From contig CAJCBL010000277.1 of assembly GCA_903960515.1 (NCBI GenBank), positions 1-49,014 of the forward strand: DNA of 49,014 bases, read 5' to 3'. The notes under the pieces are model-generated. The model searched no databases, was not told where the DNA came from, and was given only the letters and a program-made list of their open reading frames with translations. How positions within the stretch are numbered: the stretch's first letter is position 1; the number at the start of each line of letters is the position of its first letter. A program made the position numbers and the translations under genes. This DNA comes from an uncultured Verrucomicrobiota bacterium (lineage in GTDB: Bacteria > Verrucomicrobiota > Verrucomicrobiia > Opitutales > Opitutaceae). Below, one piece after another: positions 2,367 through 38,681 of this stretch.

Positions 2367-3341
2367 CTAGTTTTGGCAGCAGCCGTCGCCGCCGTCACAG
2401 CCGGCACAGGACGAACACGCCTCGCGGATTACCCGCCCCCGGGGGAAAGTAGTGATCGTGGTGTGCGCCATGTCGAAGTTGTGAGTGTGCTGCGCAACGA
2501 CCCGCACCTTGCCGGCCCCGAAATCGATCTGCATCGGCACCGTGCGCATGCCCTCGTCGTCGATGCGGCTGATTGTCTCGAAGGGCTCAATGAGCGTTTC
2601 ATTTCCGTCGGCATGCCGCACTCGCAGGCCGGTGTGGATGGTTTTCACCGAAAGGAGTGCGCCGGACGGGGCGAATTGGATGGAGTTGAGATCGGCGCTC
2701 ATGCCCACCATCTCCGCATCGAAGGCTTTCACGGTGCCGATCGGTGTGTCCAACTCTTCCACCTTGGCAGGTTCCAGTGAGCGCAGCGTACCATCTTCAT
2801 GGAGGGAAAAACCCTTTCGGACGCGCATCGGCCCGGTCGTTGTATGGATGGTGAGCCGTTCGCTTGGCCAGAGAGTCAAAGATTTGAGTACACCGCTGGG
2901 GTAGAAATGGAGGCTGATGACCTTGGCGCGGAACTTCCCCACCGGCAGGTCGAAGTCCATGGGCTCTGCGAGCTCCGCCTCCTTGCGCTCCGACCAGTAG
3001 CCGTCGATCTGGCCATTCAAGGGGAAGAGGCGGTTGATCGCCCCGTTCTCGTGAAAGCTGACCGCCTCGGCCTTGATGAGCCCCAAGGGTGTTTGCAACG
3101 GCATCGCCTGGTCTAGCGCTATGCTTTTGATTCGGCCGTTTTCAAAGAAGCCCAGCGAGCGCCGGTCCTTCTTGTTGCGTTCGCCCAGCTCGGCCATCCG
3201 GTAGAGCGGAATGATCTCCCCGAAAGGGGTTTGGAGGCGGTTCTCGGCGGCCACTCGGCACGATTTCACCGCCCCTCCGGCGTAGGTCGCCCGATCCGCG
3301 ATGCCGGAGACCGTCCCGTAGGTTGTTTCGATGGTATCCAT
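2367..3341 (-). CDS. Conserved repeat protein with Cys-rich C-terminal tail
   Basis: The protein has 324 residues and no signal peptide. It contains about five degenerate copies of a beta-rich unit. Each begins with a T-P-x-G turn (about residues 38, 84, 132, 168, 199) and continues to an F-x-x-x-G-x-L-x-S-L strand (about 66, 96, 146, 180, 223). This resembles MORN/YwqK-type antiparallel repeats. The last 16 residues hold five cysteines (C309, C312, C315, C321, C322), a likely metal or cluster site. Function is unknown. It lies downstream of a nitrogen-fixation-associated small gene, with a dispersed repeat element between them, so a nif-linked metal role is possible but only inferred. The start is the ATG at 3341; the longer open frame upstream crosses the repeat element and is not protein-like. 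Confidence 0.75.
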   Translation of the reverse strand: MDTIETTYGTVSGIADRATYAGGAVKSCRVAAENRLQTPFGEIIPLYRMAELGERNKKDRRSLGFFENGRIKSIALDQAMPLQTPLGLIKAEAVSFHENGAINRLFPLNGQIDGYWSERKEAELAEPMDFDLPVGKFRAKVISLHFYPSGVLKSLTLWPSERLTIHTTTGPMRVRKGFSLHEDGTLRSLEPAKVEELDTPIGTVKAFDAEMVGMSADLNSIQFAPSGALLSVKTIHTGLRVRHADGNETLIEPFETISRIDDEGMRTVPMQIDFGAGKVRVVAQHTHNFDMAHTTITTFPRGRVIREACSSCAGCDGGDGCCQN

Positions 3342-3444
3342 GGTGAGGCTCGTAGTGCAGGTCCCGCGCCGCTGCAGGAGCGGTTCGTGAATTTCTGTGC
3401 CCAACTGCGGAATGTTGCCGGAGTGTAGTGGTCCCAACGCCTGA

Positions 3445-3575
3445 GCCGTGACCATTCGTAGGAGCGTGCTTGCACGCGATTCAGAGCGCAGATCGCGTGC
3501 AAGCACCCTCCTACGGCGGGCACCGGAGTTTGTGCATTGCCAGAGCGCGAAGCGGTACGACTGCATGGCCACGCC
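3445..3575 (+). repeat. Dispersed palindromic element, copy 1 (about 130 bp)
   Basis: The outer ends GCCGTGACCAT (3445-3455) and ATGGCCACG (3565-3573) form imperfect terminal inverted repeats. Inside, GTAGGAGCGTGCTTGCACGCG pairs with a matching arm ending near 3524, giving a stem of over 20 bp around a loop that includes AGAGCGCAGA. A second motif, CAGAGCGCGAAGCGGTACGA, lies at 3541-3560. Two further near-full copies lie at 34076 and 38754. The element sits between the Rop-like gene and the Cys-tailed gene. It is MITE- or REP/BIME-like and carries no gene. Confidence 0.85.
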
Positions 3576-3640
3576 TGAGCAGGGGACAGTGGGCCCCGCG
3601 TACTGTCGCGGCGAAGCCGGCCGGGTCGCGAGCCGGAGGG

Positions 3641-3838
3641 TCAGCCGCTGAGCGCGGACAGCTTCTGTTTGGCTGCCGCGAGGCTTTGGTGGGGCTGGAA
3701 AGTTCTTTGCGCCACCTCGGGGATGCGCTGCCAGTCGGTCGGCAGCTCCTCGGAGAGGTCGTGCAGGTCCATCTCGGTCTGCACCGCGAGGGAACTGAGC
3801 TTCTTGATTTCGGCTTTCAGTGTTTCGAGCGTGTCCAT
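3641..3838 (-). CDS. Small Rop-like helical protein of the nitrogen-fixation-associated CCE_0567 family
   Basis: The protein has 65 residues and is almost entirely helical. It has an early TLETLKAEIKKL helix and then the conserved segment MDLHDLSEELP, W36 and VAQRTFQ. This matches the short Rop-like (PF05082, DUF683) proteins that form four-helix dimers and are found almost only in nif gene clusters, where they are thought to bind metal or assist nitrogenase cofactor work. The start is ATG 3838, preceded by GGAAAC. A sigma-54-like promoter lies 26-42 bases upstream of the start codon, which fits nif control. No nifHDK genes are in the window, so the rest of the cluster may lie to the left, beyond the insertion sequence, or elsewhere. 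Confidence 0.75.
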   Translation of the reverse strand: MDTLETLKAEIKKLSSLAVQTEMDLHDLSEELPTDWQRIPEVAQRTFQPHQSLAAAKQKLSALSG

Positions 3839-4211
3839 GTTTCCGGGGGGAGTCGCTGCCCGAGAGCAGTCCGGGTGCCAGCCTTCGGGCCTCCTGCCGG
3901 TTCATGGTGGGCAACCGAAGCCGGGCCGCATTCCCGGACGCCTCTATTCGGAAATTACACGGGCCGCAGGCGTTAAGGCTGCTGCTTGCTGTGGGTGCGT
4001 GGCGTGTCCCGCGTACGGCAGCGGGCTTCTGTGTCGCCCAGGGGAGCATCCATGAATAGCAGATACTGCTCGGGCGCTCGTGGGAGACCCGGGGCATGTG
4101 CGGCGGCCAAGGCCGTGGCGCGCAGGGCCTCCCAATAGGCTGAGGCGTTTCCTCCGGGTCCACCAACTCGATACTCCGTGCCTCACCAAGGCGCAGTTGG
4201 ACGTTTACCGT
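3839..4211. other. Intergenic region upstream of the Rop-like gene
   Basis: There is no supported gene. It contains the sigma-54-like promoter described separately. I looked for a NifA-type activator site (TGT, ten bases, ACA) and did not find one between the promoter and the kinase gene. Confidence 0.5.
3864..3880 (-). promoter_or_regulatory. Sigma-54 (RpoN) type -24/-12 promoter
   Basis: Read on the minus strand the site is TGGCAC, five bases, CTGCT. The GG and GC dinucleotides are separated by exactly ten bases, as in the consensus TGGCAC-N5-TTGC, with one mismatch in the -12 box. It points at the Rop-like nif-associated gene, and initiation about 12 bases downstream would leave a leader of roughly 15 to 20 bases. 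Assignment is from sequence match only. Confidence 0.6.
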
Positions 4212-9532: not shown

Positions 9533-9718
9533 TGGAAAAGCCCGTGACCAAACGGCCCGGAGGGAGGGGTGGCAAGACCTTTTTGAACAAGTTTGAGGAC
9601 TTCTGTGATTTTGCTGCGTTGGCCGGCCGGTGGGGCGGTTGAGAATGCCTGGCTTTGGCCCCATCGTTGCCCACGGCCGAGCTCGCTGCGCAGGTGCAGC
9701 GGCCGAGGCCTAAGGAAC

Positions 9719-11077
9719 ATGAAAACCAAGGTGGATAGCGGGCACAAGGGCGGGGTGGTATTCGCAGTCCTCATGCCGCATGCGCCCATACTGGTGCCGG
9801 CGGTGGCCGGCGAGCGCATCGCCGAGTGCAGGACCACGGTGGAGGCGCTGGGGCGGGCTGCGCGGAGGCTGGTGGCTGCGCGGCCGGAGGCGGTGGTGTT
9901 GCTTTCTCCCCACGCTCCCAGGGTGGCTCGGGCCTTCGGGGTTACCCGGAAAACGGTTACGGGTTCACTGGCCGCGTTCCTCGCCCCTCAGGAGTCCGTG
10001 GAGCTGCCGGGCGATGCGGCGCTGGCCGGGGCTATCGGTGCCGCCGCAGCGCAGCGAGGGATAGGTACCACTGAACTGGAGTCGATGAAGCTCGACCATG
10101 GCAGCGTGGTGCCGCTCTGGCACCTCGCAGCTGCCGGCTGGCGTGGCTCCACGGTGGTGCTCTCCCTTGCCTGGGACGACAATTCCCGGGTGGGGGATCT
10201 GGGCGAGGCGGTCGCTGCGGCGGCGCCTCAGCTTGGCAGGCGCGTGGCCGTGGTGGCCAGCGGCGACATGAGCCACTGCCTCAAGCCCGGGGCCCCCGCT
10301 GGATACGACCCGGGCGCCGCCCGCTTCGACGCCGCCTTTGTCGCGCAACTGCGCCACGGCGCCACCCGCGGGCTTGCGGCCGCAGTATCCCTGCTTCGGG
10401 AATGCGCCGCCGAGGACGTGGTGGAGTCGACACTGTTCGCCCTTGGCGCCTCCGGGTGGCGCGCCGATGGGCGCGAGGTGCTTGGATACGATGGCCCCTT
10501 CGGCGTGGGCTACGGGGTGGCGGTGCTCTTCGACTCCAGCGCGGCCTCAGCCCCAACCCCGCCCGATCTGCCGGCGGTGGCCCGGGCCGCGATCGCAGCG
10601 GCGCTGGCCACGGGAACTACCGAGGCCCCGCAGCTCGGCGGGTTCCCCTCCTCCAACGGGGTGTTTGTCACCCTGCATGGGGCCGACGGCCGGCTCCGCG
10701 GCTGTATAGGAACAATGGTTTCGCATTCCGGTGATCTTGCGGTGGAGACTTGGCGGATGGCCCAGGAGGCCGCGCTGCGCGACGGGCGCTTCGCGCCGGT
10801 GCAGCCTGCCGAGCTCCCCGGTTTGCGGATCGAGGTGACCGTGCTCGAGGCACCGGAGGACATCGAGTCGCCAGCCGAGCTGGATCCGCAGCGCTGGGGC
10901 GTGGTGGTGCGCGCTCCCGATGGGCGCCGCGGAGTGCTCCTGCCGGGGCTGCCGGAGGTGACCGCTGTAGACCAGCAGGTCGCCATCGCACGGGCCAAGG
11001 CCGGAATCGGGCCGCATGAAGCGGTGCGCCTGCAGCGATTCGGAGCCCGGCGCATCGAGGAGGGGCCTCTGGCATGA
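9719..11077 (+). CDS. AmmeMemoRadiSam system proteins B and A fused (Memo-like plus AMMECR1)
   Basis: The protein has 452 residues. Residues about 13-272 are a Memo-like domain related to class III extradiol dioxygenases, with His at H21 (MPHAP), H65 (SPHAP), H127 (DHG) and H186 (GDMSHC), which would form the metal site. Residues about 285-452 are an AMMECR1 domain with the signature LRGCIG at 326-331 followed by the WRMAQEAALRDGRF helix. The two are usually separate genes; here they are one chain. The overlapping downstream gene is the radical SAM member. The system is widely conserved in bacteria and archaea; to my knowledge its chemical role is unsettled. AAGGA six bases before ATG 9719 supports the start. 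Confidence 0.9.
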   Translation: MKTKVDSGHKGGVVFAVLMPHAPILVPAVAGERIAECRTTVEALGRAARRLVAARPEAVVLLSPHAPRVARAFGVTRKTVTGSLAAFLAPQESVELPGDAALAGAIGAAAAQRGIGTTELESMKLDHGSVVPLWHLAAAGWRGSTVVLSLAWDDNSRVGDLGEAVAAAAPQLGRRVAVVASGDMSHCLKPGAPAGYDPGAARFDAAFVAQLRHGATRGLAAAVSLLRECAAEDVVESTLFALGASGWRADGREVLGYDGPFGVGYGVAVLFDSSAASAPTPPDLPAVARAAIAAALATGTTEAPQLGGFPSSNGVFVTLHGADGRLRGCIGTMVSHSGDLAVETWRMAQEAALRDGRFAPVQPAELPGLRIEVTVLEAPEDIESPAELDPQRWGVVVRAPDGRRGVLLPGLPEVTAVDQQVAIARAKAGIGPHEAVRLQRFGARRIEEGPLA

Positions 11078-12117
11078 AGGCGCCCGGCTTGCGCCCCGAG
11101 GCCCGCTGGTGGAGTCCGCTGAGTGGCGACAGGATCGTGTGCACCCTGTGCCCGCGAGGCTGCAAGCTGCGCGACGGGCAGGACGGATTCTGTTCGGTGC
11201 GAGGCAACCGAGGCGGCACGATGCGGCTGCTGGCCCACGGGCGCAGCAGCGGGTTTTGCATCGACCCGATCGAGAAGAAGCCGCTGGCGCAGTTTCTGCC
11301 CGGTTCCCGGGTGCTTTCGTTCGGCACGGCCGGTTGCAATCTCGCCTGCCGGTTCTGCCAGAACTGGCGGATCAGCCGAGCCCGGGCGGAGATGCTGGAC
11401 GGCGAGCCTGTCGCGCCGGAGTGGATTGCTGCGGAGGCGGTGCGGCTGGGCTGCCGGTCGGTGGCTTTCACCTACAACGACCCGGTGGTGTTCGCCGAGC
11501 AGGCGCTGGAGGTCGCTGCGGCCTGCCGGGCGGCGCGGGTGCGCACCGTGGCGGTGACCGCCGGCTACATCTGCCCCGAGCCGCGGGCGGAGTTCTTCGC
11601 CGGCATGGATGCGGCCAACGTCGACCTCAAGGGCTTCTGCGAGGAGTTCTACCGCAGGCAATGCGGTGCGAGGCTGGGCCCGGTGCTCGAAACCCTCGAA
11701 TACCTGCACCGGCAGACGCGGGTGTGGCTGGAGGTCACCACGCTGCTCATCCCCGGCCTTAACGACAGCTTGGCCGAGTTGGACCGGGCAACGGATTGGT
11801 TCGCGGCCCACCTGGGGGCGGAGGTGCCGTGGCATTTCTCGGCCTTCCACCCCGACTACCACATGCTGGATATCCCGCCCACCGCGCCGGAGAGTCTGGC
11901 GCGGGCCCGCCACCTCGCCCTGTCGAAAGGGCTGCACTACGTCTACACGGGGAACGTGCGCGACCTCGACGGCGGCCGCACCTGGTGCCCGCAGTGCGGC
12001 CGGTGCGTGATCGATCGTGACGGATACCGGCTTACCGAGTGGCACCTGCGCGCGGGGCGCTGCGGCTTCTGTGGTGGCGAGATAGCCGGGGTGTTCGAGG
12101 AGGAGCGGGCCGGGTGA
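11074..12117 (+). CDS. amrS: AmmeMemoRadiSam system radical SAM enzyme
   Basis: The protein has 347 residues. The radical SAM cluster motif CxxxCxxC is at C88, C92 and C95 (GCNLACRFCQNW). An N-terminal Cys set (C23, C26, C30, C40) and a C-terminal zinc-ribbon-like set (WCPQCGRC, then CGFCGG) suggest extra metal sites, typical of this family and related to pyruvate-formate-lyase activators. Its ATG overlaps the stop of the B-A fusion (ATGA, 11074-11077), so translation is coupled and the products probably act together. The barrel motifs FTYNDP and NVDLKGF are present. Confidence 0.93.
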   Translation: MKAPGLRPEARWWSPLSGDRIVCTLCPRGCKLRDGQDGFCSVRGNRGGTMRLLAHGRSSGFCIDPIEKKPLAQFLPGSRVLSFGTAGCNLACRFCQNWRISRARAEMLDGEPVAPEWIAAEAVRLGCRSVAFTYNDPVVFAEQALEVAAACRAARVRTVAVTAGYICPEPRAEFFAGMDAANVDLKGFCEEFYRRQCGARLGPVLETLEYLHRQTRVWLEVTTLLIPGLNDSLAELDRATDWFAAHLGAEVPWHFSAFHPDYHMLDIPPTAPESLARARHLALSKGLHYVYTGNVRDLDGGRTWCPQCGRCVIDRDGYRLTEWHLRAGRCGFCGGEIAGVFEEERAG

Positions 12118-24441: not shown

Positions 24442-26094
24442 TTAGCGATCGTCGGGCAGGGGGGCGGGGGCGCGGTCGAGAGCGGTTTGGATGGTATCGA
24501 TCATCTCGTCGCGGCCGGCGATGAAGAGGAAGCGGTCGCCGGCCAGCTTGCTGCGGGCGGACTGAAGCAGTTCGGGGGAGGGGCGGCGCATGGCGAGCAG
24601 CCGGCGCAGGTTGGCGTAGAGTTCGTCGGGAAGGCCGCCCTCGAGGTCGAGGTCGATCAGCCGGGTAAGGGCGGTCTGGTTGCGGAGGTCGGTGGTTACG
24701 GCTTGGGCGAGCACGCGCCGGGCGGGGGCACGTTCCTTGAGGGCGAGGAGGCGGTTGGCGATGGCTATGAGCTGTTCGGCGCGCAGATTGGGCTGGGCAA
24801 GGAAATGGTTGAGGTAGAGCTCAGCGTCTTCGCGCTGGCCCAGGCCGAAGCAGGCCACCGCTTGGAGGCCATCGACGAAGCCTTGGGATTTTTGGAGCCA
24901 CTCGCGATGGGCCTCGCCGAACTCCGAAAGGAAAGCGAGGGCGGGGCGGTATTCGCGGGCGACAATGTGGGCCTCGGCGACCATGAGGGCCAAGGGCTCG
25001 GTGCTGAGCTGGTGCTCCGCGCAGTGGCGGTATATCCGCATTGCGAGTGCGGGATCGCCGCTGCTTGTGGCGAAGTTGCCCAACGCTTGGAGTGCGTTTT
25101 GGTCGCCGGCGAAATCGCGCATCACCGCCTCGATGCCGCGTTGGAGCTGGGAGGTGTTGTTGGTCCTCTGGTACGCTTGGAGCAGTTCGATGCGTGCGGC
25201 GATGCTGCGCGGGTTGGCGAGTTCGCGCAGGAAGGCGAATTTCTCGGCCTCGCTGTCGTGGCCCAGTTCGCGGTGGAAGGCGGCGAGCTGGCTGTAGAAA
25301 TCCTCGTCGTTGGGGGAGGCCGCGCTGTAGGAGCGCAGTTGGTCGAGTGCGGTGTTGTGCTGGCCGCGTTCCCACGCTATGCGGGCGAGCAGCAGGCGGC
25401 CGTCTTTGGTGCGCAGGAGCTCATAGTCCTTGATGAGGGCTTCGGCGGCATCGCTGTTGCCCCGATAGAAATGGGAGGAGGCGGAGGCGAGGGCGATGAG
25501 CTGGTTGCGGTCGTTGATCAGGGGGCGGGAGGGCAGGAGTTGGGCGGCGATCCGGCGGATCTCATCATCTTCCTGATACTGCAGGAGGAACCCGAAGAGC
25601 GCTTTGAGGTAGTTGGTGTTGTTTGGGTCGTAGGGCAGGCCTTCGACCAGTGTGCGCTGGGCCAGCTCGACGCGCCCAAAGAGCGCGAAGAGTTGGGCGA
25701 GAATGAGGCGCCCCTCTGTGTTCGATGGGGATGCCGCCACGCCCACTCGCAGGTGGTGGATCGCGTCGGACCACTTCTGCAGTTTGAGCTCCTGCTGGGC
25801 CTGCTTGATGTAATAATTGCCGCGCGACACCCGATAGGTGGCCCAGCGCTGGGGCAGCAGGATGTCGACGATGCGCGCCTCGGAGAAGCCTCGGCCGTAT
25901 TTCACCCAGCCAAAGAGCGAGACTCCGGCCAGAAGCCAAGCGGCCACTACGGCCATGAACAGCATCTGGATCAGCCGAGCCCAGGCGACGTGAAGCCTCA
26001 GACCCGAGGCTTCGCGGGTGATCGAAATGGGGAAGGTCCACCAGGGCTGCCTAGGGGTGGTGGGCTTGGTGATTTTCTGATGTTGGGCGTCCAT
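24442..26094 (-). CDS. Membrane-anchored TPR protein linked to exopolysaccharide export
   Basis: The protein has 550 residues. A transmembrane segment near the N-terminus (LIQMLFMAVVAAWLLAGVSLFGW, about 41-63) is followed by roughly 480 residues of helical tetratricopeptide-like repeats. Clear units include NYYIKQAQQELKLQKWSDAIHHL, EGRLILAQLFALFGRVELAQ and DPALAMRIYRHCAEHQLS. The TPR part is likely periplasmic. It is divergent from the export operon with a 116-base shared promoter region. TPR scaffolds (AlgK, PelB, BcsC type) typically join inner- and outer-membrane polysaccharide machinery, so a similar bridging role is inferred. Confidence 0.82.
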   Translation of the reverse strand: MDAQHQKITKPTTPRQPWWTFPISITREASGLRLHVAWARLIQMLFMAVVAAWLLAGVSLFGWVKYGRGFSEARIVDILLPQRWATYRVSRGNYYIKQAQQELKLQKWSDAIHHLRVGVAASPSNTEGRLILAQLFALFGRVELAQRTLVEGLPYDPNNTNYLKALFGFLLQYQEDDEIRRIAAQLLPSRPLINDRNQLIALASASSHFYRGNSDAAEALIKDYELLRTKDGRLLLARIAWERGQHNTALDQLRSYSAASPNDEDFYSQLAAFHRELGHDSEAEKFAFLRELANPRSIAARIELLQAYQRTNNTSQLQRGIEAVMRDFAGDQNALQALGNFATSSGDPALAMRIYRHCAEHQLSTEPLALMVAEAHIVAREYRPALAFLSEFGEAHREWLQKSQGFVDGLQAVACFGLGQREDAELYLNHFLAQPNLRAEQLIAIANRLLALKERAPARRVLAQAVTTDLRNQTALTRLIDLDLEGGLPDELYANLRRLLAMRRPSPELLQSARSKLAGDRFLFIAGRDEMIDTIQTALDRAPAPLPDDR

Positions 26095-26210
26095 TCGAGG
26101 CTGAGTGGCGGGGGACCCTAGGGTATCGTCGCGCAATTGCTACCCAATTTGGCCTTGCCGTCGGAGTATCCGCCTTTTTGGCTGTGGCCGGCTCAAACCC
26201 AAACTTTATT

Positions 26211-26669
26211 ATGAACAAACGCTTCTTCCCCATCCTGCTGAGCGTCTCGATCGCGGCTCTGGCCGCGCGTGCCGAAGTGAATATCGATTCCGTGGTTACT
26301 GCGGCCAAGGCCGACACCACCAAGGCTTCGGCCATGATCGCCAAGGCGGCGGCGGACAACCCGGAGGCCGCCGTGAAGCTGGTCTCGGCCACTGTAACGG
26401 CGATTCCGGACAAGGTGGTTGAGATCGTTTGCGCCGTTTGCAAAGGCCTGCCCAAGCTTTCCCCCGAGTTGGTGCGCGCCGCGCTCGACGTGTATCCGGA
26501 CCGCTCGGCCGAGATCGTCGTGGGCGTGACCGATTGCGTGCCCGCCGATTTGCGCGAGGCCCTCGCCGCTCCCTCCAGCGCAGTTGCCGCGCCCGGTGCA
26601 CCGGAAGGCCCCAAGTTCATTCCCCAGCCGCTCCTGAATCCCGACGGCCCCGTCAGCCCCTCCAGCTAA
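26211..26669 (+). CDS. Secreted protein with 15-residue helical repeats
   Basis: The protein has 152 residues. The signal peptide is M1 to about A21 (FFPILLSVSIAALAARA). The mature part has prolines at exactly 15-residue spacing (51, 66, 81, 96, 111), each followed by a hydrophobic helix such as PEAAVKLVSATVTAI or PDKVVEIVCAVCKGL. This is a short-helix repeat with consensus P-x-x-A/V-x-x-I/L-V. The last 35 residues are Pro/Ser-rich and extended. Three Cys fall in the repeat region. I do not recognise a named family. It is the first gene of the export operon, 21 bases before the beta-barrel gene, so a periplasmic or cell-surface role in polysaccharide export is likely. No clear ribosome site precedes ATG 26211. 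Confidence 0.75.
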   Translation: MNKRFFPILLSVSIAALAARAEVNIDSVVTAAKADTTKASAMIAKAAADNPEAAVKLVSATVTAIPDKVVEIVCAVCKGLPKLSPELVRAALDVYPDRSAEIVVGVTDCVPADLREALAAPSSAVAAPGAPEGPKFIPQPLLNPDGPVSPSS

Positions 26670-26690
26670 GCCTTAGTTCCTATACCTTCC

Positions 26691-27833
26691 ATGAGTTGCA
26701 AATCGATCTTGGGGATCGCCGCGTCAGCGTGCGTCCCGGCGTTGGCTTTTGCCGGCAGCGGTTTTGTTTTGAATGATGACACCACGCTCCACCTCACCGG
26801 TGTGGGCCAGGTACGATTCGAGGACAATGTTCTCCTGACCAAGCACAACACCAAGTCCGACACGATCTTCTCGATCATCCCGGGCGCGGAGTTGGACTAC
26901 AACGGCGGCCAGAGCAAGGGCGTGGTGACGCTCAGTGAGGATTTCGAACGCTATGCGAGCAATGGGCATATGGATGCTGAGCTGTTCTCCGGGATCGGGG
27001 AGCTCAAGTACGACAGCGGCATGACCAAGATCGATTCGCGTATTGGCTACCGTCAGATGAACCAGGGAAGCAGCTCGGCCCGCAATGCCGACCAGACGGT
27101 TCGTCACGATCTCTTCGATGCCTCGGTCAATGGCAACTGGTCGGCTACGGCCAAGACCAGCATCGGCTCCGGCATCATGTACGATAGAACAAATTACGCA
27201 GGAGCCGGCTACGCAGACAACGAGCACTTCAGCCTGCCCCTCGACGTCTACTACTCGGTTTCGCCCAAGGTGGATGTTAGTTTTGGGTACCGGTACCGCA
27301 GCACGAAGATCGAAGAGCTGCCGGCTGTGCCAGTGAACTACGATTCGAACGACCACTTCTTCAACGTGGGCGCCCGCGGCGAGTTCACTCCGAAGCTCAA
27401 GGGCCAGTTCCGCGTGGGTTACGGGATTCGCGATTTCGACCACCAGGATACGACCGATCAGCTAGGCCTTTCGGGCGGGTTGACCTATGTCTATTCCCCT
27501 AAGACCTCGTTCGATTTTTCGGTATCCAACGATTTCGACAATTCCGTGGTCGGCACCTCGCAGGAGGTTTTCGCGGTGCGCACGGGCGGCAAGTTCGCAT
27601 TTACCCCGCAGTGGAGCGCCCAGGCCGGCCTGAGCTTCGAGTCCACCAAGTATGCAAACTCAACTCGCACGGATGACTTCTTCGTGGGGGATGCCGCCGT
27701 GGCCTACGCCATGAACGAAAGCGTTTCCATCCAGGGGGCATACTCCTACCGGACCAGCTCCAACTCCAAGACCTACAGCGTTTACGACTTCAATAGCAAC
27801 TTGCTCAGCCTGGGGATTTCGCTCCGCTACTGA
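26691..27833 (+). CDS. Outer-membrane beta-barrel protein, candidate polysaccharide exit pore
   Basis: The protein has 380 residues. The signal peptide ends near ALAFA (about residue 21). The whole mature chain alternates amphipathic strands with polar turns (VGQVRFEDNVLLTK, KVDVSFGYRYRSTK, KGQFRVGYGIRDF, FDFSVSNDFDNS) and ends LLSLGISLRY. The terminal aromatic residue is the usual BAM recognition signal. By strand count it could form a barrel of about 16-18 strands (PF10082-like). It lies immediately before a short OPX protein that cannot cross the outer membrane itself. OPX proteins of that class are known to need a separate porin, so this is the best candidate. Confidence 0.85.
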   Translation: MSCKSILGIAASACVPALAFAGSGFVLNDDTTLHLTGVGQVRFEDNVLLTKHNTKSDTIFSIIPGAELDYNGGQSKGVVTLSEDFERYASNGHMDAELFSGIGELKYDSGMTKIDSRIGYRQMNQGSSSARNADQTVRHDLFDASVNGNWSATAKTSIGSGIMYDRTNYAGAGYADNEHFSLPLDVYYSVSPKVDVSFGYRYRSTKIEELPAVPVNYDSNDHFFNVGARGEFTPKLKGQFRVGYGIRDFDHQDTTDQLGLSGGLTYVYSPKTSFDFSVSNDFDNSVVGTSQEVFAVRTGGKFAFTPQWSAQAGLSFESTKYANSTRTDDFFVGDAAVAYAMNESVSIQGAYSYRTSSNSKTYSVYDFNSNLLSLGISLRY

Positions 27834-27891
27834 AGTGACTGGTTTCCTGCTTGCTTGTTCTGGGGCCGGGATTGATGTGCGTTGTACTCCG

Positions 27892-28488
27892 ATGTCTTTC
27901 GCACGACGATTCACGGCCCTTTGTTTTATCCTCCTGCTGGCTGCCCCCGCCTGCTCGTGGGCGGTCGACAAAGCCGCGGCTGCCAAGGATTACACCTTGG
28001 AGCCGGGCGATGTGGTGGCGATCAAGATATTCCAAGAGCCCGATCTGGATCGGGAGTTGCGAGTATCGCAGGAAGGGGAGCTGTATTTCCCCCTCATCGG
28101 CAAAGTGGCGGCTCGGGGCCATTCGCTGGTCGAGGTCGAACAGTTCGTGCGCGAGGCCTACGACCGCGATTTCCTGGTCAACCCCCAGGTCAATGTCGTC
28201 GTGCTCAAATATCAGATTCGCACGGTGAACGTGCTTGGCGCCGTGAACACGCCCCAGGCCGTCGAGTATCCGCCCGAGCAGCGGCTCACGCTATTGGACG
28301 CCATTTCCCGCGCCGGCGGCTTCAACCGGCTCGCCGATCGCCGCCGGGTGCGCCTTACCCGCACCTTGGTTGACGGACGCGTGGAGAACTCGGTGATCAA
28401 CACCGACGATCTCATGTCCGGCGTCGCCAAGGATCCCCTTGTCCTCCGCAAGGATGACGTCGTGTTTGTTCCCGAAAGAAGGCTATGA
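27892..28488 (+). CDS. Short polysaccharide export (OPX/Wza-like) protein
   Basis: The protein has 198 residues. A signal peptide (FTALCFILLLAAPACSWA) is followed by the Poly_export (PES) domain at about 34-106 (YTLEPGDVVAIKIFQEPDL, then LYFPLIGKV), one SLBB domain at about 111-160 (VNVLGAVNTPQAVEYP) and a closing strand pair VLRKDDVVFVPERRL. Wza has 359 mature residues and a C-terminal amphipathic helix forming the outer-membrane pore; none of that is present here. The sequence PAC at residues 19-21 is not a good lipobox. It is therefore a periplasmic class of OPX protein. The stop overlaps the next start (ATGA). The start is ATG 27892. Confidence 0.92.
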   Translation: MSFARRFTALCFILLLAAPACSWAVDKAAAAKDYTLEPGDVVAIKIFQEPDLDRELRVSQEGELYFPLIGKVAARGHSLVEVEQFVREAYDRDFLVNPQVNVVVLKYQIRTVNVLGAVNTPQAVEYPPEQRLTLLDAISRAGGFNRLADRRRVRLTRTLVDGRVENSVINTDDLMSGVAKDPLVLRKDDVVFVPERRL

Positions 28489-30725
28489 CCAACGGAGACG
28501 CTTCAGATCAGGGTAAGTCCGGATACGGACAAGCTCGCAATCCCCAGCCGGGCCCAGGTGGGGCCGAGGCCAGCTATAGCTACGGCTACGGCGACAACGC
28601 CGGTGCCGCCGAGAGTGCGCAGCACCGCAACATGCGCGATTATCTTCTGATCCTGCGCGAGCGGATGTGGTACGTACTGGTGGTCTTCCTCGTGGTCTTC
28701 TCGGCCACCCTGGTCTACACCTTCAGCCGCACCAAGATGTACACTGCCGGTGCCACCATCGAAATCATGCGCCGCGACGCCGTGGTGATGAAGGTGGAGG
28801 AGGTGCGTGACAACGACATACGTGGCCCCGAGGATCTTAATACACAGGTCAAGCTTCTCGAGAGCCTGGCGATCATTCAGAAAGTGTCCGAGCGGCTCGT
28901 GGGTGCGGAGGCCAAGGCCTTCCTGGCTCCCTACGAAACCGGCGGCAGCGGCGACCCGATCTCGCCGCGCGAGATTCTTGGCCGTGAGCGCAAGGTCATG
29001 CCGGTGCGCCAGACGCGCCTGATTTTGGTGACCTACAGCCATCCCGACCCTGAGGTGGCCGCCAAGGTGGCCAATCTATTCGTGGATGAGTTCGTCACCT
29101 ACAATACGCGGCAGCGCATGAACGAGTCGATGACCGCCGTGGAGGCTTTGCGCAACCGCGCCGATAGCCAGAGCCAGAAGGTGCAGGAGTTGGCCATCAA
29201 TCTCCAAGGCTACAAGGAGCGCAACAACATGGTCTCGCTCGACCAGCGCAAGGACATCGTCACCGAGAAGCTCAAGGCGCTCAACATGCTGCTCACCCAG
29301 TCCTCCGCGAAGCTCCAGGAGTCCGAGGTACGCTGGACCCAAGTGCAGGAGTTTCGCAAGAGCGGCACCAGCCTCGCCGACCTCACCTTCATCGCCACCG
29401 TCCCGCTCATCCAGAGCCTTTCCCAGCAGGTGGCAGCCCAGAAAATCGCCGTGGCGCAACTCCAGCAGCGCTACCGTGCCAAGCATCCCAAGATGCATGA
29501 GGCCCTGCAGTCCCTCAGCCAGACGGAGACCGAGTTCAACCGGGCGCTGGATACCGTGGCCAACAACGTCCGCAGCGAATACGAGACCAACCGCCGCACC
29601 TTTGAACAGGCCCGCACCGATCTCGCATCCCAGGAAACCGAGGCACTCAAACTCGATCGCATGATGGTCGAGTATCAGTCGCAGCGCAACGCCATGGACG
29701 TCAACGAGCAGTTGCTGGCCAACATCGTGGGCCGCATGCGCGAAACCGCCATGAACGCCAACATCGAGACCCAGAACGCCCGCCGTCTCGACCAGGCCGT
29801 AGCGCCCCGCCCTCAGGACTATTCATCCCCCAAATACCTCATCTACATCTCGATGGGTTTTATGGGCGGGCTGGGGCTGGGGTTGGTTTTCGCCCTTTTC
29901 GTGGCCTTCATCGACGACCGCGTGAAGAGCGCCTTCGACATCGAGGCCGTGGTGGGTTTGCCGCTCATCGCCATAGTGCCGCAGATCCGCAATATGGAGC
30001 CCTTGGAAAAGAGCCAGGTCGCGGTTTCCAACGCAGATCCACAGGCCTCCGAGGCCTTCCTTTCTCTGCATTCCAATCTGCGCCTCAAGGATGAGAGCAA
30101 GAACGCCAAGGTTATCATCGTCACCAGCACCACGCCGAGCGAAGGCAAGTCCTTCATCACCTCGAATCTGGCACTGACCTTCGCCGCCCACGGTGAGCGC
30201 ACCATCATTGTCGACTGCGATCTGCGCAAGCCCAACGTCCACCGCTCCTTCGGGGTCGAGAATATCAAGGGCGTTATCGACTATTGCGTCACCGGCACCC
30301 CCTTGGACGCCCTGCTCATCAGGGACCACCAGCCCAACTTCGACATTCTTCCCGCCGGCGGCCGCGCGAAGAACCCCACTCAGATTCTCAACGGCAAGAA
30401 CTTTGAGCTGCTCATTGCCGAACTGCGTACCCGCTATGACCGCATCCTTATCGATACCCCGCCGCTTGCTGCGGTGAGCGACGCGATGCTGGTGCTGCCG
30501 TTGGCCGACGGCTCGATCTTCACGATCATGTTCAACCACGTCCGCCGCAAGGCCGCTCAGTTCTGCGCCCACCGGCTCATGGACTCCAACGTCCCGTGTT
30601 TTGGCGCCGTGCTCAATGCACTGAACCTTTCGGTGAGCGGTTACTACTACGCGCAGTACTACGACAAATCCTACAAGGATTACTTCGTGGTGGCCGACGA
30701 CGGCAGCGTCTCCGAGAAGCAATAA
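28485..30725 (+). CDS. Polysaccharide co-polymerase/BY-kinase (Wzc-like)
   Basis: The protein has 746 residues. Its polar N-terminus is Gly/Tyr-rich. TM1 is at about 61-80, then the Wzz periplasmic domain with long coiled coil (about 200-430), then TM2 at about 449-472. The cytosolic bacterial tyrosine kinase domain has Walker A STTPSEGKS (about 546), Walker A' IIVDCDLRKPN (about 573) and Walker B ILIDTPPL (about 653). A Tyr cluster near the C-terminus, YYYAQYYDKSYKDYF, is the autophosphorylation site typical of Wzc. Together with the OPX protein it should span the periplasm and control chain length and export. It is the last gene of the operon. Confidence 0.95.
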   Translation: MTNGDASDQGKSGYGQARNPQPGPGGAEASYSYGYGDNAGAAESAQHRNMRDYLLILRERMWYVLVVFLVVFSATLVYTFSRTKMYTAGATIEIMRRDAVVMKVEEVRDNDIRGPEDLNTQVKLLESLAIIQKVSERLVGAEAKAFLAPYETGGSGDPISPREILGRERKVMPVRQTRLILVTYSHPDPEVAAKVANLFVDEFVTYNTRQRMNESMTAVEALRNRADSQSQKVQELAINLQGYKERNNMVSLDQRKDIVTEKLKALNMLLTQSSAKLQESEVRWTQVQEFRKSGTSLADLTFIATVPLIQSLSQQVAAQKIAVAQLQQRYRAKHPKMHEALQSLSQTETEFNRALDTVANNVRSEYETNRRTFEQARTDLASQETEALKLDRMMVEYQSQRNAMDVNEQLLANIVGRMRETAMNANIETQNARRLDQAVAPRPQDYSSPKYLIYISMGFMGGLGLGLVFALFVAFIDDRVKSAFDIEAVVGLPLIAIVPQIRNMEPLEKSQVAVSNADPQASEAFLSLHSNLRLKDESKNAKVIIVTSTTPSEGKSFITSNLALTFAAHGERTIIVDCDLRKPNVHRSFGVENIKGVIDYCVTGTPLDALLIRDHQPNFDILPAGGRAKNPTQILNGKNFELLIAELRTRYDRILIDTPPLAAVSDAMLVLPLADGSIFTIMFNHVRRKAAQFCAHRLMDSNVPCFGAVLNALNLSVSGYYYAQYYDKSYKDYFVVADDGSVSEKQ

Positions 30726-36165: not shown

Positions 36166-36524
36166 GCGCCGGCCCGGAGGTGGTTCGTTGTCGCACCAGC
36201 CCCAGCACGGAGGTCGGTCGCGTCCTCGTGCAGTCGCCCCTAATGCAGCTCGGACCCGTTGTCGCCCGGATCTGTTTTCCACCGAAGATGGTGCAGGGTT
36301 GCCGCCAGCGGGGGCGCGGGGGCTGCGATTGAACCGGCTCGGGCGCAAGGTCCGGCTCCTCTTATCTGAACTGCCTGATACACGGCGTATGCCAAGTGGG
36401 GGCATCGGTGGACTCTGCTGCCAGTTGGCAGCGTCATCCTAGCCCGTCGGTTAGAAAACCGCGCTCGCTAGCGAGCCTCGTTCAAAACCGAGTGCATGCT
36501 CGCTGCTGACACGAACAAGCGTCA
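36166..36524. other. Gap with no supported gene
   Basis: The region lies between two convergent units. A segment near 36440-36500 (GCTCGCTAGCGAGC and TTCAAAACCGAG) looked tRNA-like at first, but no cloverleaf can be drawn. No gene is supported. Confidence 0.4.
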
Positions 36525-36558
36525 GCCCTCGCAGAGGACCGCAATCCTCAGCGAGGGC
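36525..36558 (-). terminator. Hairpin after the carboxyltransferase gene
   Basis: GCCCTCGC-A-GAGGA (36525-36538) pairs with TCCTC-A-GCGAGGGC (36545-36558), a 13-bp stem with one A/A mismatch, starting 12 bases past the gene's stop. On the minus strand it is not followed by a T run, so it may act as a 3'-end stabiliser or a weak terminator. Confidence 0.5.
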
Positions 36559-36570
36559 GGGGCAGGCGGC

Positions 36571-38070
36571 TTAGCTGGCGATTTCCTCGACGGCCACACC
36601 GAAGGTGCGACCGTTGAGGGTGATCGAATACTGGGAGCCAGGGCCGGCGGGCGCCGGGATCGACGAGGGCCCAGTGGCCGCCTGCGCCACCGGAGTTGCC
36701 ACTGCAGCCGGAGCGGCGGCGGGGGCCGGAGCGGGCTTGAGCAGCTTGTCCAGCTCCTGCGGGAACATGGCGTGGAGCACGGCCATCTCGTCGGTATCCG
36801 CGAAACCCTTGGCACGGAGCTCGCCCTTGAGCTTGGCCATGCGAGGAGCCAGGAGGTCGGCCTGGCGCTCGCCCGAGCGCTTCTGGCCGGACTTCTTCTC
36901 GACCTCGGCGAGCAGGTCGGCGTCGACCGTGCCGGGGGTGGCGCCGTATTTGCCCAAAAGGACGTCGACGGTGGGCTGGGCGATGTTCTTCCAGCGGCCG
37001 AACTTCACGTTGAGCATGGCCTGGGTGCCCACGATCTGGGAGGTGGGGGTGACCAGCGGTATCCAGCCCAAGCATTGGCGCACGTAGGGGATTTCCGCGA
37101 GCACGGCATCGAGCTGGCCGTCCATTTTCTGCTCCTTGAGCTGGTTGCGGAAGTTGCTGAGCATGCCGCCGGGCACCTGGTAGATGAGCGTGGCGGTGTC
37201 GGTGCGCTCGTTGGCGGGGCTGGTGAACTTGCCCAGTTCGGCGTAGACCTTCTCGAAGTGTTTCTCGAGGGCGATGAGCGTGGCGCGGTCGTAGGAGGGG
37301 CAGCGTTCGAGGCCTTCGAGCACGGCGAGCATGCGCAGTGTATCGGGCTGTCCGGTGCCGTTGGCGAAGGGGGCGATGGAGGTGTCGATGCCGTCGACGC
37401 CGGCCTGGGTGGCGGCGTGGTAGGAGGCGGCGGCAAGGCCGGCCGTATCATGGCTGTGGAGGAACACGGGGAGCTTGGTGCGCTCCTTGATGCCCTTGAC
37501 CAGGGCGCGGGCGGTCTCGGGCTGGATGAGCCCGGCCATGTCCTTGATGCAGATCGAATCGCAGCCGAGGGCGGCGATGTCGTCGGCCAGTTGGAGGAAC
37601 TTGGCTACGGTGTGCACCGGGCTGATGGTGTAGCAGATGGTGCCCTGGGCGTGCTTGCCGGCCTTCTTCACCGCGCGGATGGCGGTACCCAGATTGCGGA
37701 CGTCGTTGAGGGCGTCGAAGATGCGGAAAATGTCCAGGCCGCGAGCGGCGGTGGCGGCGACGAAGGCCTCGACCACGTCGTCGGGGAAAGAGGTGTACTG
37801 CACCAGGTTCTGGCCGCGCAGCAGCATCATCTGCGGGGTTTTCGGGGCGGCTTTCTTAAGGGCGCCGAGGCGCTCGAAGGGGTTCTCCCCCAGATAACGG
37901 AGACAGGAGTCGATGGTGGCGCCGCCCCAGGTTTCGAGGGCGCCGAAGCCGAGCGAGTCGAGCTGGGCGCAGGCGGGGAGCATCTGGGCGGTGGTCATGC
38001 GGGTCGCGGCGAGCGACTGATGACCGTCGCGAAGGACGGTGTTGTTGAAAACGACGGCCGTGGTTTTCAT
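36571..38070 (-). CDS. Oxaloacetate decarboxylase alpha/pyruvate carboxylase B-type carboxyltransferase, no biotin domain
   Basis: The protein has 499 residues. The TIM-barrel carboxyltransferase domain opens NNTVLRDGHQSLAATRM and contains FRIFDALND, CIKDMAGL (the carbamylated-Lys region) and FLHSHDTAGLA. The conserved carboxylase domain follows (PGGMLSNFRNQLKEQ, GTQAMLNVKFGRWKN). After a Pro/Ala linker the chain reads YSITLNGRTFGVAVEEIAS and stops just where the biotinyl domain normally begins; no AMKM-type lysine motif is present. Biotin must then be on a separate carrier, as in some Na+-pumping decarboxylase systems. No beta subunit or carrier gene is in the window. The start is ATG 38070. 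Confidence 0.92.
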   Translation of the reverse strand: MKTTAVVFNNTVLRDGHQSLAATRMTTAQMLPACAQLDSLGFGALETWGGATIDSCLRYLGENPFERLGALKKAAPKTPQMMLLRGQNLVQYTSFPDDVVEAFVAATAARGLDIFRIFDALNDVRNLGTAIRAVKKAGKHAQGTICYTISPVHTVAKFLQLADDIAALGCDSICIKDMAGLIQPETARALVKGIKERTKLPVFLHSHDTAGLAAASYHAATQAGVDGIDTSIAPFANGTGQPDTLRMLAVLEGLERCPSYDRATLIALEKHFEKVYAELGKFTSPANERTDTATLIYQVPGGMLSNFRNQLKEQKMDGQLDAVLAEIPYVRQCLGWIPLVTPTSQIVGTQAMLNVKFGRWKNIAQPTVDVLLGKYGATPGTVDADLLAEVEKKSGQKRSGERQADLLAPRMAKLKGELRAKGFADTDEMAVLHAMFPQELDKLLKPAPAPAAAPAAVATPVAQAATGPSSIPAPAGPGSQYSITLNGRTFGVAVEEIAS

Positions 38071-38141
38071 GGGTGGCAAGAGGTGAAGGCGAGGATTGGA
38101 GTTTGCGGGTCGGAAAGGGATGGATCTAGCATGGGGAACCC

Positions 38142-38681
38142 ATGACAGTCGAAGAACGTTTGGACAAACATCTTGGCCGAGATCCTCAGATCGATCCGTC
38201 GGCCTATGTTGCGCGAGGCGCGATCATCGTCGGCGATGTTCGCGTCGGGCCACGAGCGAGCATTTGGCACAATTGCGTGCTTCGCGGCGATATCAATTCC
38301 ATCGAAATCGGAGAGGGCAGCAATGTGCAGGACGGCACGATGGTGCACCTGGCCGACGAGTACGGGGTGAAGGTGGGCAAGCACGTGACCATCGGTCACG
38401 CTGCGATGATCCATGCCTGCACCATCGGCGATGAATGCCTGATCGGCATGCACGCCACCATCCTCGACGGTGCGGAGATCGGCGAGCAGTCGATCGTCGG
38501 TGCGCATTCGCTGGTGACCAATGGCACGAAGATCCCCCCGGGTTCGTTGGTGATGGGCGTGCCGGCCAAGGTGGTGAAGCAGCTCACGCCTGAGGCGCGC
38601 GCCAAGATCCGCACTTGGGCCGAGAAGTATGAAAAGGTTTCAGCCTTCCACAAAGCGAAGTTCGGCCAAGGCACAGGGTGA
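38142..38681 (+). CDS. Gamma-carbonic anhydrase family protein
   Basis: The protein has 179 residues. It is a left-handed beta-helix of hexapeptide repeats ([IV]-G-x-x at six-residue steps, for example IIVGDVRVGPRASIWHN and IEIGEGSNVQDGTMVHL). The Zn-type histidines are in MVHLA and GHAAMIHACTIGDECLIGMHA. A C-terminal helix (ARAKIRTWAEKYEKVSAFHKA) closes the trimer. It may be an active gamma-CA or a CaiE/PaaY-like thioesterase; sequence alone does not separate these. It is divergent from the carboxyltransferase gene across 71 bases, an apt neighbour if it supplies bicarbonate or CO2. Confidence 0.9.
   Translation: MTVEERLDKHLGRDPQIDPSAYVARGAIIVGDVRVGPRASIWHNCVLRGDINSIEIGEGSNVQDGTMVHLADEYGVKVGKHVTIGHAAMIHACTIGDECLIGMHATILDGAEIGEQSIVGAHSLVTNGTKIPPGSLVMGVPAKVVKQLTPEARAKIRTWAEKYEKVSAFHKAKFGQGTG

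What the first reader, a model, noticed from the sequence alone, without database searches (positions are those of the whole stretch)
26094..30725. Minimal exopolysaccharide exporter with a short OPX protein and its own beta-barrel
The operon encodes a secreted 15-residue-repeat protein, an outer-membrane barrel with a C-terminal aromatic residue, a 198-residue Wza-like protein and a Wzc-like kinase; a TPR scaffold gene is divergent. The OPX protein ends after one SLBB domain and a strand pair, so it has no outer-membrane helix ring. OPX proteins lacking that region are known to depend on a separate barrel porin, which would be the adjacent 380-residue protein. No sugar transferase, Wzx or Wzy is linked, so the exporter is genetically detached from its synthesis genes. 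The TPR and repeat proteins may be unrecognised parts of the trans-envelope bridge.
Basis: partly seen in the sequence, partly recalled or inferred. Interest (0 to 1): 0.62.

Follow-up and report, generated by a model that had tools for sequence, protein, structure and literature searches.

The report
Orphan sugar-polymer exporter of Opitutales
Neighbouring genes in a verrucomicrobial genome encode a machine that probably pushes long sugar chains out of the cell; its core is of a type described in 2022, but here it sits apart from the genes that make the sugar and keeps a conserved extra partner protein whose role is unknown.

Summary
The genes are real. Window 26691-30725 encodes an AlgE-like 18-strand outer-membrane barrel (model), a short OPX protein of two periplasmic domains and a Wzc-like kinase: the D1D2-OPX/beta-barrel composite translocon reported in 2022 (EpsX/EpsY, VpsM/VpsN). 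The core is therefore not new. Three things add to it. (1) The divergent TPR gene is a conserved partner: beside the barrel in 21 of 26 core loci and, starting from TPR genes instead, in 26 of 30; in one genome TPR and barrel stay together while OPX and kinase lie on another contig. All 36 genomes with a hit, of 288 drawn from the phylum, are in the same family or order. (2) No listed sugar-transferase, flippase or Wzy/ligase hit lies within 30 kb of any of 26 core loci, as far as contigs reach, against 27 of 84 other OPX matches; 16 of 26 adjoin Sua5 and rpsR, so the module looks inherited. (3) The small repeat protein is an accessory (6 of 26) built of 15-residue helices; 10 of 11 members end in SP[STA]x. 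Export itself and the roles of the TPR and repeat proteins are inferred. New variant of a known kind.

The parts
24442..26094 (-). TPR protein, 550 aa from ATG, one predicted membrane segment near the N terminus; conserved divergent partner of the barrel gene
26095..26210 (.). intergenic stretch between the divergent genes, presumably holding promoters of both (not tested)
   Evidence: coordinates; inference
26211..26669 (+). small protein with a signal-like N terminus, 15-residue helical repeats, Pro-rich tail ending VSPSS; accessory
26691..27833 (+). outer-membrane barrel, BBP2_2 family, 18 strands in the model
27892..28488 (+). short OPX protein (D1 and D2 only), 198 aa from ATG
28485..30725 (+). 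Wzc-like polysaccharide co-polymerase with BY-kinase domain and Tyr-rich tail

Best explanation
This is a composite polysaccharide export machine. The Wzc-like kinase sits in the inner membrane and controls polymer length and export. The short OPX protein forms a ring in the periplasm. The AlgE-like barrel supplies the outer-membrane pore that the OPX protein lacks. The divergent TPR protein most likely works with the barrel, as an inner-membrane-anchored periplasmic scaffold. The small repeat protein is an optional accessory. The polymer is made by enzymes encoded elsewhere, and the exporter is inherited as a core module. Shown: gene content, where the OPX domain ends, barrel fold (model), conserved linkage, no listed synthesis genes nearby. 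Inferred: ring assembly, OPX-barrel contact, that the cargo is a polysaccharide, TPR topology and scaffold role.
For: Domain content and order match the described translocon (PMC9601211 abstract and sections 10-11). Barrel: pLDDT 89.2, 18 long strands, no plug domain; AlgE ranks first, Z 19.8, as the paper reports for EpsX. Barrel-OPX-kinase order in 26 core loci and in all 70 complete named loci. TPR beside the barrel in 21 of 26, 37 of 54 named loci with enough upstream DNA, 26 of 30 TPR-first loci. TPR gene in 24 of 26 genomes with a core locus and 4 of 31 without; one of the 4, G051, keeps TPR and barrel together apart from OPX-kinase. Detachment: 0 of 26 against 27 of 84 within 30 kb. Sua5 and rpsR follow in 16 of 26 loci.
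Against: No experiment. 17 of 54 named loci and 5 of 26 core loci lack the TPR gene beside the barrel, and G005 and G008 have no TPR hit at 1e-28, so it is not always needed. Ten of the 15 regions outside the core group have a barrel near OPX by profile and none has the TPR gene, so the TPR partner belongs to this group only. Porins of other function score nearly as high as AlgE (18.8). TPR flanking charges hardly favour a periplasmic domain: more K/R before the membrane segment in 9 of 19, after it in 4, equal in 6.
Confidence: 0.72

Rival explanations
1. The core is the composite exporter, but the TPR protein is a regulator or assembly factor (for the barrel, or cytoplasmic like LapB) and not a scaffold in the polymer path.
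For: Topology is not settled by flanking charges. The TPR gene is divergent and in some genomes unlinked (G026, G027, G056) or not found (G005, G008).
Against: Close linkage to the barrel gene and the G051 pair point to a partner of the barrel. The N-terminal part before the membrane segment is long and net positive in most members, which argues against an outside N terminus.
Confidence: 0.3
2. The machine exports the product of a synthase-dependent pathway, with OPX and kinase added, and not a Wzx/Wzy or ABC polymer.
For: AlgE is the best fold match; a TPR protein is a component of synthase exporters (PMC9601211, introduction passage); G043 has a core locus but no PF02397 or PF01943 hit.
Against: OPX and a Wzc-like kinase accompany the barrel in all 26 core loci, and these belong to Wzx/Wzy or ABC pathways. 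EpsX is AlgE-like too but serves a Wzx/Wzy pathway (PMC9601211). No synthase was searched for genome-wide.
Confidence: 0.12
3. The synthesis genes only look detached because draft contigs are cut or because families other than the three searched are linked.
For: Several core loci lie on short contigs (for example 7.4, 10.5 and 18.5 kb). General glycosyltransferase families were not searched.
Against: Five core loci lie on contigs of 3.7 Mb or more with no hit within 30 kb. The recurrent neighbours identified are housekeeping genes.
Confidence: 0.12

Closest known systems
Myxococcus xanthus EpsX/EpsY with co-polymerase EpsV (PMC9601211; the same OPX is called WzaX in PMC9603273)
   Same: D1D2-only OPX, 18-strand barrel with AlgE as nearest structure, Wzc-like co-polymerase.
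   Different: Here a constant divergent TPR gene, sometimes a repeat protein, a BY-kinase domain in the co-polymerase, and no linked synthesis genes.
Vibrio cholerae VpsM/VpsN (named in PMC9601211) and the kinase VpsO (PDB 6u1q)
   Same: Barrel, short OPX and kinase; the kinase profile matches VpsO at 6e-52.
   Different: The Vibrio genes belong to a biosynthesis cluster (recalled); here none is linked.
XrtA/XrtB PEP-CTERM exopolysaccharide loci (EpsL, EpsE, EpsF, EpsG, PrsT models)
   Same: Same kinds of parts; best NCBIfam matches include EpsL, EpsE, EpsF and PrsT.
   Different: All these equivalog scores are far below cut-off. The genome's exosortases lie on other contigs.
AlgK/AlgE and PgaA synthase-dependent exporters
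   Same: TPR protein plus AlgE-like barrel.
   Different: OPX and kinase present; no synthase among the window proteins scanned; here the TPR protein has a membrane segment near its N terminus.

Membership tests
D1D2-OPX/beta-barrel composite translocon | OPX with PES motif and SLBB (D1, D2), at most 280 aa, no outer-membrane helix | tested here: met
   PF02563 and SLBB_2; 198 aa; PDB match reaches residue 215 of 217; no hydrophobic segment after the signal region
D1D2-OPX/beta-barrel composite translocon | Barrel gene within five genes of the OPX gene | tested here: met
   adjacent, 58 bases to the OPX ATG; PF10082
D1D2-OPX/beta-barrel composite translocon | 18-strand AlgE-like barrel | tested here: met
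   model only: 18 long strands, AlgE Z 19.8
D1D2-OPX/beta-barrel composite translocon | OPX and barrel stabilise and bind each other; polysaccharide secretion depends on them | not testable with these tools
   needs mutants and pull-downs
Wza-type (Class 1) OPX | C-terminal helix forming the outer-membrane pore | tested here: not met
   protein ends after D2
BY-kinase (Wzc) co-polymerase | Walker A, A' and B motifs, membrane segments, C-terminal Tyr cluster | tested here: met
   TIGR01007 141 bits over cut-off 108; Wzc and VpsO in the PDB
XrtA/XrtB PEP-CTERM export proteins | Score over the curated NCBIfam cut-offs (EpsL, EpsE, pepcterm_export, PrsT) | tested here: not met
   47.7 of 275, 97.5 of 262.65, 90.3 of 180, 48.4 of 312.2 bits
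Synthase-dependent exporter | Linked inner-membrane synthase | tested here: inconclusive
   none among the 29 window proteins scanned; not searched genome-wide

The most novel reading that the evidence does not exclude
The TPR protein is a structural part of the translocon: an inner-membrane-anchored periplasmic solenoid bound to the barrel that spans the gap left by the short OPX, giving a hybrid of the Wzx/Wzy exporter (kinase, OPX) and the synthase exporter (TPR, AlgE-like barrel). It would serve a polymer shared by many Opitutales and made by unlinked genes, with the repeat protein as an optional periplasmic part whose C-terminal SP[STA]x docks into the machine.
Probability: 0.3. Interest if true: 0.6.

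Novelty: new variant of a known kind. Interest (0 to 1): 0.42.

Why it matters
The 2022 work raised the question of how a two-domain OPX spans the periplasm and proposed long co-polymerase helices (PMC9601211, section 10). A conserved TPR partner of the barrel suggests a second, testable answer. An exporter inherited apart from a synthesis cluster also makes it possible to ask which unlinked pathway feeds it, and hints at a polysaccharide common to many Opitutales.

Tried and rejected
Conserved flanking genes as parts of the system: rejected; those identified are an aminotransferase, Sua5, rpsR, a HAD hydrolase, an SBF symporter and a CorC-type protein. Candidate synthesis loci in the window genome: C101 is a sugar-modification cluster with PF02397 and DUF3485 genes, and C51 has a sugar transferase beside type II secretion genes; neither could be tied to this exporter. 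The larger barrels of other OPX loci (557, 915 and 914 aa) as TPR-barrel fusions: no TPR match at E 0.01. Fold search with the repeat-protein model: no match at E 0.001, best 0.99; mean pLDDT 69.1, so only the helix pattern is used. A longer periplasmic part of the kinase as compensation: the stretch between the membrane segments at 63 and 458 is about 375 residues, but I made no measured comparison with Wzc, so no claim is made. Positive-inside test of the TPR protein: weak. PDB matches of the TPR profile are generic TPR proteins and the barrel profile has none significant (best 0.036).

Rows dropped and limits. Core loci: kinase hit of E 1e-143 or better with a barrel hit beside OPX, 26 of 41 regions (window plus L033-L072). 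The other 15 are weaker paralogues or lack a barrel hit; among them L056 is the split G051 locus. Of the OPX rows, 110 were used; 14 further matches inside the same or a neighbouring protein were left out. In one search the PF02397 rows typed were only those on contigs that carry an OPX match, less one beside another typed row. One search did not list its weakest matches. Row L154 is not a repeat protein and was discarded; L109 is cut by its contig start; the screen is not exhaustive. Genomes are related, so the Fisher values are not independent tests.
Full report
Setting. The window is one whole contig (C277) of a 5.5 Mb draft genome in 379 contigs. The closest named relatives by the kinase are two MAGs called Verrucomicrobia bacterium WAS_Bin_16 and Opitutaceae bacterium nzgw611 (75 and 74% identity). 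Among the named matches is Geminisphaera colitermitum TAV2, family Opitutaceae, order Opitutales. The window's own record is not named.

The genes. Left to right: a TPR gene on the minus strand (24442-26094), then on the plus strand a small repeat protein, a barrel, a short OPX protein and a Wzc-like kinase (26211-30725). The gaps are 21 bases, 58 bases to the OPX ATG, and a 4-base overlap, so the four plus-strand genes look like an operon. The kinase has strong membrane segments at 63 and 458 (a weaker one follows at 480), Walker A, A' and B motifs and seven Tyr in its last 90 residues; its profile matches Wzc and VpsO in the PDB.

Structure. The best PDB match to the OPX protein is a 186-residue polysaccharide export protein, over residues 44-215 of 217, E 2.3e-23; Wza chains match it over the same part only. 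The barrel model from 26 sequences has mean pLDDT 89.2 and 18 long strands with no plug domain. VIA-align ranks AlgE first (Z 19.8, rmsd 5.2, 320 residues); other porins follow from 18.8, so the fold alone does not prove function. All 31 barrel homologues listed end in Tyr or Phe.

What is known. Schwabe et al. 2022 (PMC9601211; I read the abstract, passages and sections 10 and 11) describe D1D2-OPX proteins that work with an 18-strand barrel whose closest structural homologue is AlgE, in M. xanthus and, by genomics, in 10 phyla; VpsM/VpsN is another pair. They assign 185 such pairs to Wzx/Wzy and 14 to ABC pathways and leave 287 unassigned because the closest biosynthesis gene is a co-polymerase, so exporters without obvious synthesis neighbours were already visible. 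Saidi et al. 2022 (PMC9603273; passages only) call such OPX proteins Class 3. The core of this finding is therefore of a known kind. The word stem 'verrucomicrob' does not occur in the main text of either paper.

Conservation. OPX homologues occur in 48 of 57 relatives, the window's genome included. I fetched 40 regions around hits; with the window, 26 of 41 are core loci with barrel, OPX and kinase in that order on one strand, and 21 of the 26 have the divergent TPR gene beside the barrel (in L040 it is broken by stop codons). In named genomes 80 loci were fetched by the kinase; 70 hold all three genes, in that order each time; of 54 with at least 2.6 kb upstream, 37 have the TPR gene there and 17 do not; of 16 with less, 5 show it. 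Searching the phylum with the TPR profile gave hits in 36 of 288 genomes at E 1e-20, all in the same family or order. Of the 30 loci returned, 26 have the barrel divergently beside the TPR gene; one of these is the window itself, some others were seen before, and one miss (L178) is at a contig end. Across 57 relatives the TPR gene (E 1e-28 or better) is in 24 of 26 genomes with a core locus and 4 of 31 without. One of those 4, G051, has a TPR-barrel pair on one contig and OPX-kinase on another, which ties TPR to the barrel in particular. Against a general role: 10 of the 15 non-core regions have a barrel near OPX by profile, and none has the TPR gene.

Detachment. PF02397 hits lie within 30 kb of 0 of 26 core OPX genes and 14 of 84 other OPX matches. 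With PF01943 and PF04932 added it is 0 of 26 against 26 of 84 within 10 kb and 27 of 84 within 30 kb. Contig ends limit some distances, but five core loci lie on contigs of 3.7 Mb or more. General glycosyltransferase families were not searched. The window genome offers a contrast: its second OPX locus (C163) carries an exosortase, a BBP2-type barrel, a Wzy_C protein and a Wzt-like ABC protein. In 16 of 26 core loci a Sua5 gene runs convergently right after the kinase, with rpsR about 1.0 to 1.35 kb on; in 16 of 26 an aminotransferase lies upstream. These neighbours recur in several families of the order, so the module looks vertically inherited. The window's copy, among others, lacks them.

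The repeat protein. It lies between TPR and barrel in 6 of 26 core loci (window, L033, L034, L037, L048, L050). Related genes lie upstream of the barrel in L085, L109 (partial), L124, L156 and L163 among the named loci. A profile search of 57 genomes found it in 4, at this locus each time, all four contributors to the profile; it missed the divergent copies of G007 and G025, so it is not exhaustive. The model shows helices at 15-residue steps, block pLDDT 72-87 over residues 21-110, and a disordered tail. Ten of 11 members end in SP[STA]x; shuffled tails give 0.09 on average and never more than 3. The members were first seen by position and composition, not by this motif. Function is open; contact with the exporter through the C terminus is a guess.

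The TPR protein. Each of 19 members examined has one membrane segment near the N terminus and no other. The charged tail before it suggests N-in with the TPR domain in the periplasm, but flanking charges hardly discriminate. PrsT, a TPR lipoprotein of the PEP-CTERM system (PMC1569441, passages), scores 48 bits against a cut-off of 312, so it is an analogy. The title of PMC9384988 (search listing only) calls the TPR domain of PgaA a scaffold that binds PNAG, the nearest model for function.

Literature on this combination. Four searches with OPX, TPR, barrel, exopolysaccharide and Opitutales or Verrucomicrobia terms listed no paper whose title or shown abstract start reports a TPR partner of the OPX/barrel exporter in this order. 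The library holds open-licence papers only, and one search listed 12 of 27.

Verdict. A real, conserved exporter of a described class, in an Opitutales variant with a conserved TPR partner and no listed synthesis genes nearby. Interest is moderate; it rises if the TPR protein proves to be part of the conduit.

Noticed in passing
L168:9556-12674 (G051:C4) and L056:4566-7614 (G051:C10): In one genome of the order the exporter is split: TPR and barrel genes together on one contig, OPX and kinase on another.
   Followed up: partly
L080:1-15666 (G000:C51): A PF02397 sugar transferase (562 aa) directly follows type II secretion-like genes (secretin, T2SSE, T2SSF), with AlgX-like and MBOAT genes on the other strand nearby.
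   Followed up: no
L070:4456-10452, L071:9611-15552, L072:1002-6871: OPX loci of a second kind (with an exosortase in L070) carry BBP2-type barrel proteins of 557, 915 and 914 aa; the long N-terminal parts of the two larger ones match nothing in Pfam at E 0.01.
   Followed up: partly
G000 contigs C163, C363, C111, C301: Four exosortase (PF09721) matches in the window's genome.
   Followed up: no
window 9593-12117: A 494-residue protein with LigB (Memo-like) and AMMECR1 domains, overlapping by a few bases a radical SAM gene.
   Followed up: no
window 36496-38145 and 2367-4166: Long ORFs (549 and 599 aa) with no Pfam match at E 1e-4; whether they are genes was not tested.
   Followed up: no
L040:11797-13502 (G022): The TPR gene is interrupted by stop codons in one genome although barrel, OPX and kinase are intact there.
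   Followed up: no
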